Positions 12,157 to 59,522 of a stretch of DNA of 64,000 nt are shown piece after piece. Every line of letters starts with the position of its first letter. The first letter of the stretch is position 1. A program made the translations under genes and the position numbers. Source of the DNA: Aradus depressus (taxonomy: Eukaryota > Arthropoda > Insecta > Hemiptera > Aradidae). The notes under the pieces were generated by a model. It was not told the DNA's origin and did no database searches. It saw only the letters and a program-made list of their open reading frames with translations. Location: assembly GCA_963662175.1 (NCBI GenBank), contig OY759215.1, forward strand, positions 26,945,534 to 27,009,533. The letters run 5' to 3'.

Positions 12157-12416
12157 CAAAAATATGACCAGCTTCTCCCCTCATGTAATCCTCTTACCTT
12201 CAACTCTCCTCCTTCTTGGCCTGCCTCCACTGCTGGACAGTGATTGGAGGGGCGAGAAGGCAGGAGGGATCACTCGAGCCCCCGCGGCCTCCCCTCCCCC
12301 ATTAAGTTGGAGGGATGGGGATGACAGAGAACCGGGGGTGTTTCGAGGGGTTGCGAGTTGAAGGGTTTTCATGTTAATAGAAATAAAAGACGTTGTCTTC
12401 CCACTGTTTTATTTAT

Positions 12417-12458
12417 ACCAGAACTGGTTTTCGACGTAACAGCGTCATCATCAGTGGT
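12417..12458 (-). ncRNA. Hammerhead-like ribozyme motif (P1, left arm, damaged)
   Basis: Core CTGATGA and GAAA are intact and stem I ACCA/TGGT pairs. Stem II has lost one pair (GACGC against ACGTC) and the stem III palindrome is broken (AACCAGTT). Confidence 0.4.
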
Positions 12459-12508
12459 TCATCCACCCACACAGCACAGCGGTTGGAAGATAACTGGCCA
12501 GTGGATGA

Positions 12509-12550
12509 ACCACTGATGATGACGCTGTTGCGTCGAAAACCGGTTCTGGT
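12509..12550 (+). ncRNA. Hammerhead-like ribozyme motif (P1, right arm, intact)
   Basis: Read 5' to 3': stem I ACCA (12509-12512), CTGATGA (12513-12519), one extra T, stem II GACGC/GCGTC with loop TGTT (12521-12534), and GAAA (12535-12538). The last A opens the self-complementary stem III AACCGGTT, followed by C12546 as the nucleotide before the expected cleavage, then stem I TGGT (12547-12550). Every conserved hammerhead position is matched except for the extra nucleotide after CTGATGA. A stem III without a loop implies action as a dimer, as proposed for Penelope-type minimal hammerheads. Confidence 0.6.
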
Positions 12551-12739
12551 ATAAATAAAACAGTGGGAAGACAACGTCTTTTATTTCTATTAGAAATCTA
12601 GTCCCACAACATCTTATTATCACATATGGTGTTCATGTTCATTTTATTATATCAATATTATTATTTTATTCTTATGTTTATGTTTATTATAATTTAAATT
12701 TAATATTTTCTCTTTGTTTTGTACATATTATATTATTTG

Positions 12740-14512: not shown

Positions 14513-14561
14513 TTTTGATTCTCATATGTGATAGTAAAGATATGGTGGGACAAGGTTTCTC

Positions 14562-14752
14562 GTAGAAATAAAAGACATTGTCTTCCCACTGTTTTATTTC
14601 CAAGCCATCAGTACAGTGCGGAGTTAGAGACTTTTCATTGAACTCCACACTGTACGATTGGGATGGGCCATTGATCATGACGCAGATGCGTTGAAAACCG
14701 GTTCTGATTAGAAATAAAACAGTGGAAAGACTACGTCTTCTATTTCTATGTT
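14562..14752. mobile_element. P1 foldback, diverged copy
   Basis: The outer arms TAGAAATAAAAGACATTGTC (14562) and CTACGTCTTCTATTTCTA (14733-14750) pair, as do inner arms GTACAGTGCGGAGTT and AACTCCACACTGTAC. The hammerhead region at 14667-14708 keeps stem II (GACGC/GCGTT), GAAA and AACCGGTT, but its CTGATGA has become TTGATCA. It is therefore probably inactive. Confidence 0.6.
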
Positions 14753-41490: not shown

Positions 41491-41793
41491 GATCGCTACA
41501 TATTGAAGATGCTATCTAATACATAAGTAGTTATGTACGAATATAATTTATATTTAATCAAAATGTTTACATTAAGAGAACAAAATAAATGAAAATTCAT
41601 TTCAATTGCAATGCAGATTCTTCACGTGAATTGTACTGTTTTGTTTCTATTATTTTTCACTCGCGTTAATTTAAAAAAATTTTCCCCCAATAAAACGGCT
41701 TTGAGCGTGGTTACTATTTCCAAACATTTATGTCACATTCAATGAACGAATGATTACTCTAATATGAAGATGGCTGATGTAGTGAGAAGTGAT

Positions 41794-42056
41794 TATTTCA
41801 CAGGATGTCAAATATAAGATAGTCTGACCTCTCACAGATTTTTATTGGTAATAACAGCTAGCCGGCTTTAGATTGTTATTTATTTATTTTTATTTTTTTT
41901 TTATTATATTATATTATTTAGTTCTATTCAAAAATTTTTAATTTTTTATCAGACTGCCTGATGATGAGGGAAACCTCGAAAGCCGGCTGGCTATTATTAC
42001 CAATAAAAATCTGTGAGAGGTCAAACTATCTTATATTTGACATCCTGTGAAATGAT
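41794..42056. mobile_element. P2 foldback
   Basis: Arms start TTTCACAGGATGTCAAATAT and mirror it at 42036-42053. The spacer is A+T-rich. The 33 bases left of the element (AAGATGGCTGATGTAGTGAG) are also found left of the P2 copy at 59100, so the two share flanking sequence. Confidence 0.7.
41957..41990 (+). ncRNA. Hammerhead-like motif (P2, right arm), cleavage-site mutated
   Basis: CTGATGA (41958-41964), extra T, stem II GAGG/CCTC with GAAA tetraloop, GAAA, stem III GCCGGC are intact. The base after T41988 is G, which hammerheads do not accept at the cleavage position. Confidence 0.45.
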
Positions 42057-42235
42057 TACTCTTTTTCTAAAAGAACGTTTATATTTATCAAATATGAATC
42101 ACAATTCTCTTCACGTATGTTCTAGAGCAAACAAGGAAAGTTTGTTTTCTTATATTCTATTTTTTTCATTTACTCTGTACCTAAATTTATATTTCAAAAA
42201 TAGCCGAAAATAAGTATAATTTGAATTACAGTTGG

Positions 42236-56985: not shown

Positions 56986-57013
56986 GCTTAAGGATGGTTT
57001 CTTTTGTAGACTG

Positions 57014-57048
57014 CCTGATGATGAGGGCAACCTCGAAAGCTGGCTAGC
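57014..57048 (+). ncRNA. Hammerhead-like ribozyme motif (P2, right arm)
   Basis: CTGATGA (57015-57021), extra T, stem II GAGG/CCTC with GCAA tetraloop (57023-57034), GAAA (57035-57038), stem III GCTGGC (one wobble), T57045 and A57046 as cleavage nucleotide. Stem I is only two pairs (GC/GC). Confidence 0.5.
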
Positions 57049-57092
57049 TAATACAAATAAAAAATCTGTGAGACGTCAGATTACATCTTATT

Positions 57093-57360
57093 TGACTCTC
57101 GATAGAATGAATATATCGACACAAAATGTTGTATGTGTATCTAGAATAAAATCAGCCTAGTGATTTTCAACCAAATCGGCCAAAACACAAAAACTATTAA
57201 CTGCGGATAACTAAATATAATAAATGTATCGACATACAATTTAGTATGTCCCAGGATTGATTATTAATTGAATTGGTAAATTGGGTTCAAAATCAAAGCG
57301 AAAACATAGTCCATTAATTCGCTTTGGGGAAGTACATTGTCTATGATTTTGTGAATTTCG
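57093..57360 (+). repeat. Family A repeat, sense, after P2
   Basis: TCTCGATAGAATGAATATAT to GGGGAAGTACATTGTC. Confidence 0.7.
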
Positions 57361-59066: not shown

Positions 59067-59099
59067 ATATGAAGATGGCTGATGTAGTGAGAAGTGATT

Positions 59100-59483
59100 A
59101 TTTCACAGGATGTCAAATATAAGATAGTCTGATGAATCTGAAGTCCCTCAGATTTTTATTGGTAGTAATAGCTAGCCGGCTTTCGAGGTCTCCCTCATCA
59201 TCAGGCAGTTGATAAAACATTTTAAAAAAATGAATAAAACTAAATAATATAATAAAAATGTGACTCAGATGGTGGACAGGAATAACTCGTCTGTCCCCAT
59301 CCATGATATTTTAAATTGTTAATGTTTTAGATTGTTATTTATTTATTTTTATTATATTATTTAGTTTTATTCAAAAACTTTTTTTTTTAAATTTTTTATC
59401 AGACTGCCTGATGAAAGCCGGCTAGCTATTACTACCAATAAAAATCTGTGAGAGGTCAGACTATCTTATATTTGATATCCTGT
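59100..59483. mobile_element. P2 foldback
   Basis: Arms TTTCACAGGATGTCAAATAT (59101) and its mirror near 59465-59483. The left arm carries a complete core; the right has lost stem II (CCTGATGAAAGCCGG, 59407-59421). Confidence 0.75.
59171..59206 (-). ncRNA. Hammerhead-like ribozyme motif (P2, left arm, intact core)
   Basis: Minus strand: CTGATGA, extra T, GAGG/CCTC with GAGA tetraloop, GAAA, perfect stem III palindrome AGCCGGCT, A as cleavage nucleotide. Stem I is two GC pairs. Confidence 0.5.
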
Positions 59484-59522
59484 CTCTTATACTTCTTCAG
59501 GATAAAAAATAGATAAAAATAG

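What the first reader, a model, noticed from the sequence alone, without database searches (positions are those of the whole stretch)
12375..12592. P1 foldback with a complete hammerhead-like core in LINE 3' UTR
Seen: near-perfect 91-bp inverted arms; the right arm has stem I ACCA/TGGT, CTGATGA, stem II GACGC/GCGTC, GAAA, palindromic AACCGGTT and C before the expected cleavage site. Known: minimal, dimer-type hammerheads occur in the terminal repeats of Penelope-like retroelements in animals. Inference: this is such a terminal repeat pair without coding part. A self-cleaving RNA inside the 3' UTR of a LINE could cut LINE transcripts.
Basis: partly seen in the sequence, partly recalled or inferred. 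Interest (0 to 1): 0.75.

Follow-up and report, generated by a model that had tools for sequence, protein, structure and literature searches.

The report
Penelope retroelement mini-copies with hammerhead motif
The near-perfect hairpin is a tiny, gene-less copy of a Penelope-type jumping gene whose coding relative sits elsewhere in the same genome; its ribozyme-like motif is the known Penelope hammerhead, and its many sister copies record how such elements insert as inverted pairs.

Summary
Confirmed: 92-nt inverted arms (98%) and the hammerhead-like letters, plus an extra U (12520) between A9 and stem II. It belongs to a family: the core occurs 3,238 times (<=1 mismatch) in the window's own genome, control 0. 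The 30 loci fetched share arm', variable centre, arm, and a 36-nt tail; 29 of 29 tested have exactly one tail and flanking repeats of 8-15 nt. L062 is a coding Penelope-like parent (RT above, GIY-YIG below the Pfam cut-off, but aligned to a sister element) with the same motif and tail, and a 93-nt interval (GT..AG in two of three pLTRs) where the small copies are joined. So this is an ORF-less, apparently spliced Penelope mini-copy. Hammerhead, inverted pLTRs, tail and TSD are published PLE features; the intron-less, high-copy foldback form with strict tail asymmetry was not found in my literature searches. Cleavage untested.

The parts
12365..12375 (.). left target-site duplication GTTTTCATGTT
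   Evidence: 10 of 11 identical to 12629-12639; longest exact word TTCATGTT; the other 28 loci of the test have words of 10-15 nt, which may include up to 2 nt of the element's edge
12376..12466 (-). pLTR arm without tail (antisense on +), hammerhead-like motif with one broken stem II pair
12463..12497 (-). 5' head (exon 1 of the parent leader, CCAGTTATC...GTGTGGGTGG) belonging to the no-tail arm
12498..12504 (.). head-to-head junction region (CTGG|CCAG, then the 5'-truncated second arm)
12501..12592 (+). second pLTR arm, sense
12509..12550 (+). minimal hammerhead motif: stem I ACCA/TGGT, CTGATGA, extra U at 12520, stem II GACGC/GCGTC, GAAA, AACCGGTT, predicted cut 12546|12547
   Evidence: the same motif is in the coding parent L062
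12593..12628 (+). 36-nt tail ending CACATATG, which in the parent runs into the ORF start region
12629..12639 (.). right target-site duplication GTGTTCATGTT

Best explanation
The feature is an ORF-less mini-copy of a Penelope-like retroelement family whose coding parent is in the same genome. Its arms are two copies of the parent's pseudo-LTR in head-to-head orientation, one arm ending at a no-tail site and the other 36 nt further (tail), with target duplications of about 12 bp. Mechanism (inferred): a short, spliced sense RNA made of leader, hammerhead and start of the coding region is bound by PLE protein; both strands of a staggered cut prime reverse transcription, one from each of two fixed internal start sites on the RNA, and the two cDNAs meet head-to-head near the RNA 5' end, one usually near-complete and one 5'-truncated. 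The hammerhead motif is the conserved minimal PLE hammerhead; it may process tandem transcripts as a dimer or with protein. It most likely has no role for the LINE-like sequence it landed in. Shown: family, TSDs, tail asymmetry in the sampled loci, missing 93-nt interval, coding parent. Inferred: splicing, two-primer synthesis, trans supply of protein, any cleavage.
For: 3,238 core matches, control 0. In the 30 loci fetched (the 30 best of 40 scored of 1,596 candidates) there are 28 distinct spacers; the longer head is on the tail arm in 18 and on the other arm in 12. TSD words 8-15 nt in 29 of 29 (mean 12.2; mispaired flanks mean 4.2, >=8 in 22 of 5,604) and exactly one tail in 29 of 29; L004 was left out of these counts as composite. 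Parent L062: 824-aa ORF with RVT_1 (E 3.2e-10) and a GIY-YIG match below the cut-off (14.9 against 22.6 bits), 40% identical over 812 aligned positions, that domain included, to a second full PLE, L061, which passes for both domains. L062's three pLTR copies all hold a 93-nt interval (GT..AG in two, AT..AG in one); over all fetched loci exact strings give 50 joined and 3 interval-type junctions, the 3 all in L062. L062 itself has a tail at one end, none at the other, and GAAGTACACCGCC at both flanks (read by eye). L004 is an intermediate: foldback plus a short direct unit with 34 nt of ORF start. Published PLE architecture matches: inverted pLTR, optional 31-bp tail, TSD, shorter inverted pLTR (PMC3846280); both strands cut and extended, two internal RT starts that explain the tail (PMC11167929).
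Against: The fetched loci are the best matches to this very foldback, so intron-less copies with similar centres are favoured; genome-wide counts of spliced against unspliced copies could not be obtained. 60 of the first 100 listed exact cores have no exact partner within 600 bp, so many copies may be single, decayed or full-length. 17 of 28 readable centres have CTGG|CCAG, whereas the parent has TATG|CCAG and 1 of 28 has TATG; a simple meeting of two cDNAs does not explain CTGG. The paper on the Anolis element saw no start-site difference between strands (PMC11167929), unlike the strict asymmetry here.
Confidence: 0.85

Rival explanations
1. Palindrome first: one cDNA folds back and primes its own second strand (self-priming), or two complete cDNAs join, giving a perfect palindrome; its centre is later trimmed asymmetrically, giving copy-specific spacers.
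For: CTGG|CCAG centre in 17 of 28, not the parent sequence TATG|CCAG; L009, L012 and L018 look internally trimmed (my reading); self-priming was proposed for PLEs (PMC3846280, passages).
Against: Self-copying should give both arms the same outer end, but 29 of 29 have one tail only; the A-run variant differs between arms in 2 of 30 and the G-run variant in 3 of 24 readable, as if from two templates, though slippage could do this too, and most arms agree.
Confidence: 0.3
2. A foldback/MITE-type DNA transposon that merely picked up a hammerhead-like sequence.
For: Long inverted arms and TSDs.
Against: 28 distinct centres in 30 copies, one-sided tail, varying TSD length, missing interval, coding PLE parent with the same ends.
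Confidence: 0.03
3. A working self-cleaving element that cuts LINE transcripts in cis.
For: Complete core with C at the cut position; 47 of 60 arms in 30 loci keep the same 46 nt.
Against: One sense motif inside a near-perfect 92-bp duplex; hammerhead fold -8.6 (-5.7 with the short stem III) against -13.5 for the rival fold of the arm alone, stem I pair probabilities 0.12-0.26; low divergence fits young age (28 private, 0 shared changes between arms) and need not mean selection.
Confidence: 0.04

Closest known systems
Penelope-like elements, Penelope/Poseidon type (GIY-YIG containing)
   Same: inverted and direct pLTRs, optional 30-40 nt tail on one side, short TSD, shorter inverted copy, hammerhead near the leader/ORF start (PMC3846280, PMC11167929); introns kept in full copies (PMC3846280; the leader intron of Drosophila Penelope is recalled)
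   Different: the finding has no ORF, lacks the 93-nt interval of its parent, and belongs to a very numerous family of pLTR pairs
Minimal hammerheads of Penelope-like elements (Cervera & de la Pena 2014, recalled; Luense, Weinberg & Breaker 2017, seen only as a citation; review PMC6155905, passages)
   Same: CTGANGA, stem II, GAAA, reduced stem III; expected to act as dimers
   Different: extra U between A9 and stem II, which here falls in an ATG; I could not check whether published examples have it
Animal non-LTR retrozymes (PMC7229834, results parts 1-2)
   Same: small ORF-less retroelements with a type I hammerhead, TSD
   Different: those are direct tandem repeats with circular RNAs; here head-to-head pairs; of the loci fetched only L004 was seen to have a direct short unit

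Membership tests
Penelope-like element family | reverse transcriptase in the coding member | tested here: met
   L062 824-aa ORF, RVT_1 40.5 bits against cut-off 29.6. The window copy has no PLE protein remnant.
Penelope-like element family | GIY-YIG endonuclease in the coding member | tested here: inconclusive
   L062 14.9 bits against cut-off 22.6; but BLASTP aligns it through the domain, including GVY and YIGQTG, to L061, which passes (28.6 bits)
Penelope-like element family | pLTRs in direct and/or inverted order | tested here: met
   L062: two direct, one inverted; window: inverted pair
Penelope-like element family | optional tail on one end continuous with the ORF start region | tested here: met
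   29 of 29 one-tailed; in L062 the tail runs into the ORF start region
Penelope-like element family | variable short TSD | tested here: met
   29 of 29, words of 8-15 nt
Hammerhead ribozyme | conserved core C3-A9, G12-A14, A15.1-U16.1, H17 and three stems | tested here: met
   stem III only as an 8-nt palindrome; the extra U after A9 departs from the recalled consensus
Hammerhead ribozyme | stem II kept by compensating changes | tested here: met
   Only between the three families of this genome: pairs GC AT CG GC CG in 55 of 63 P1 motifs, GC AT GC GC in 25 of 30 type A, GC GC and TG or CG in 11 of 12 type B. Within P1 no compensated change: 5 of 63 have one broken pair, 1 a GT, 2 a broken core; the window copy's two arms are counted twice (window and L001), so 4 of 61 distinct arms have a broken pair. 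Motifs with more than 5 edits were not collected.
Hammerhead ribozyme | covariance-model hit | tested here: not met
   no Rfam hammerhead at E<=10; the motif beside a GIY-YIG ORF (L035) is missed too, so the models may not cover this type
Hammerhead ribozyme | self-cleavage | not testable with these tools
   none
Animal retrozyme | direct tandem repeats giving circular RNA | tested here: not met
   0 same-strand pairs within 600 bp among the first 100 of 3,238 places, exact cores only; L004 is a partial exception; RNA not testable

The most novel reading that the evidence does not exclude
A high-copy, ORF-less Penelope lineage that moves as spliced sense RNA and is rebuilt at every insertion from two reverse-transcription starts, one per target strand, each fixed to a different site on the RNA (tail / no tail). 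If so, it answers from genome data the open question of how PLE inverted repeats form and shows that PLE machinery accepts spliced sense templates, while its coding parent keeps its intron.
Probability: 0.45. Interest if true: 0.65.

Novelty: new variant of a known kind. Interest (0 to 1): 0.45.

Why it matters
How Penelope-like elements make head-to-head copies and why they keep introns is left open in the 2013 paper (PMC3846280, passages), and later insertion steps are called not yet validated in the 2024 paper (PMC11167929, main text). A family with more than three thousand near-identical cores in one genome, many of them short young insertions, can supply junctions, tails and TSDs in numbers, so rival models (two-primer synthesis, self-priming, antisense template) can be scored against data. 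It also warns that long hairpins in eukaryotic genomes may be PLE mini-copies and not MITEs.

Tried and rejected
Rfam at gathering and relaxed thresholds found no hammerhead; its microRNA hits there (MIR396, MIR172, mir-1992) are below their gathering scores and I take them as what a long hairpin gives. MAFFT put stem II out of register between families (A1, A2); pairs were counted in a script instead. Cofolding of two arms could not score the dimer hammerhead (pseudoknot). No exact P1 core pattern in viral contigs. Similarity of the ends of P1 and the type-A PLE: 1 of 2,000 shuffles reached the score for arm plus tail, but the tail alone was not significant (585 of 2,000), nor was P1 against type B (735 of 2,000). 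A count of unspliced junctions was faulty (it returned 0 though three exist); exact strings replace it. Literature searches showed me no ORF-less spliced PLE foldback family; I saw listings and passages only, the listings are capped, and most subscription papers are not held. The 2014 and 2017 papers on PLE hammerheads were not read (the 2017 one is not held). PMC6155905, PMC12910113, PMC10085705 and PMC3846280 were seen as passages; PMC7229834 as outline and parts 1-2 of 3 of its results; PMC11167929 as passages and its main-text section.

Full report
Observation. The inverted repeat is real: 92-nt arms, 98% complementary, 34 nt apart, folding at -167.8 kcal/mol against -48.8 for shuffles. 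The right arm reads ACCA-CTGATGA-U-GACGC-TGTT-GCGTC-GAAA..AACCGGTT-C-TGGT at the places given.

A family, not a singleton. The window lies in a 698-Mb genome (G000:C2). The 218-bp foldback has 40 scored places (of 1,596 first-look candidates), full or nearly full length at 92-100%, most of them also matching in reverse, and two partial matches (82 rows in all). The 32-nt core occurs 1,643 + 1,595 times at <=1 mismatch, control 0. Of the first 100 exact places listed (all on contig C1), 40 form 20 head-to-head pairs within 600 bp, none is tail-to-tail and none same-strand within that distance; 60 have no exact partner that close.

Anatomy. In the 30 loci fetched (the best-scoring ones, so biased towards this form) the unit is arm', centre, arm, and a 36-nt tail on one side. 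For 29 loci (L004 set aside as composite) the flanks share words of 8-15 nt, mean 12.2 (the window copy's is the 8); mispaired flanks average 4.2 and reach 8 in 22 of 5,604; the words may include up to 2 nt of the element's edge. Exactly one tail was seen in 29 of 29. There are 28 distinct centres in 30 loci; the longer head sits on the tail arm in 18 and on the other arm in 12. Arms differ from the family sequence by 28 substitutions, none shared by both arms of a copy, and 47 of 60 arms keep the 46-nt motif region unchanged: these copies are young.

The parent. GIY-YIG frames are abundant (150 scored of 1,852 candidates, all 150 over the cut-off). In 16 of the 30 such loci fetched a strict pattern finds a sister motif, CTGATGATGA..CCTCGAAAGCCGGCTAGC or near it; in copies read through it follows the ORF end. 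That is the motif of three other pieces in the window (near 41958, 57015, 59204), and the 59204 piece still holds the last 20 codons of that ORF (59260-59319, 100%). Three P1 cores within 4.4 kb on C1 led to L062: one inverted and two direct P1 pLTRs around an 824-aa ORF with RVT_1 above the cut-off and GIY-YIG below it, but 40% identical through that domain to L061, which passes for both. The tail runs on into the ORF start region. L062's outer ends are tail on one side and no tail on the other, with GAAGTACACCGCC at both flanks (read by eye). All three pLTRs hold a 93-nt interval, GT..AG in two and AT..AG in the 5' direct one, at the point where the foldbacks join GTGG(G) to ATGAACC. I infer that the foldbacks derive from spliced RNA; whether spliced once in a source copy or at each insertion is not known. 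L004 is a half-way form: foldback, then tail, 34 nt of ORF start, and a second short unit, flanked by ACCCTAGTTT.

The motif. In three families of this genome (P1, A, B) the core is CTGANGA + U + stem II + GAAA, with the second and third stem II pairs changed on both sides between families. Changes within P1 are uncompensated single decays (8 of 63 motifs counted, two of them in the core; the window copy's arms are counted twice there). The extra U falls in an ATG. In the published Anolis element the ORF begins at stem II and the cut is 26 bp after the start codon (PMC11167929), a comparable layout; here the ATG opens only a short frame that ends at TAA (my reading). Whether the P1 RNA cleaves is not shown; in that paper cleavage needed the protein and was not needed for insertion.

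Mechanism. Published: the Anolis protein cuts and extends both strands and starts at internal RNA sites that delimit the tail; inverted pLTRs with one optional tail and a TSD are described as typical. I infer two cDNAs, one per strand, meeting head-to-head. Against a plain version: the centre is CTGG|CCAG in 17 of 28 readable loci, TATG|CCAG as in the parent in 1, which fits a palindrome-first route or a foldback acting as its own source; and the Anolis work saw no start-site difference between strands. The one-tail rule speaks against self-copying. The matter is open and testable.

The LINE. Joined flanks match an uninterrupted relative at 49600-49329 (72%, partly AT-rich), so the host sequence is LINE-like 3' sequence; Pfam gave no significant hit for the two LINE frames tested, and the LINE name is by eye. 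I found no evidence that the insertion acts on LINE transcripts.

Host. Not identified. Among the 120 listed relatives of the type-A protein most are unnamed; those with names include a moth, psyllids and a beetle at 34-37% identity, and one record labelled as a bacterial MAG at 40%, so this says only 'probably arthropod'.

Noticed in passing
window 14523-14749: Older, diverged P1 copy (about 71%), tail on the left, TSD word TTGATTCT.
   Followed up: partly
window 41760-42070: Foldback of the sister (type-A) family, TSD word AATGATTACTCT, left arm without the motif.
   Followed up: partly
window 59080-59500: Type-A head-to-head insertion that still holds the last 20 codons of the PLE ORF; TSD word AAGTATAAGAGA.
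   Followed up: partly
window 57002-57113 and 44728: A single type-A end next to a LINE-like 3' end, and another CTGAAGA..CGAAA motif with GGCC/GGCC as possible stem I.
   Followed up: no
L035, L038, L041-L043, L045: Third PLE family (type B) with motif CTGACGATGG..GCCGAAACCGG after its GIY-YIG ORF.
   Followed up: partly
L061, downstream of its PLE ORF: Tandem repeat array that is open as a 418-aa repetitive frame on the other strand.
   Followed up: no
L062 1-119 and 4628-4801: The coding P1 parent is inserted in what looks by eye like a Ty3/gypsy reverse transcriptase.
   Followed up: no
L062 about 690-720 and 1085-1120: The inverted and forward copies of the ORF end meet here, and the reading frames given for the ORF end differ between copies; described only.
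   Followed up: no
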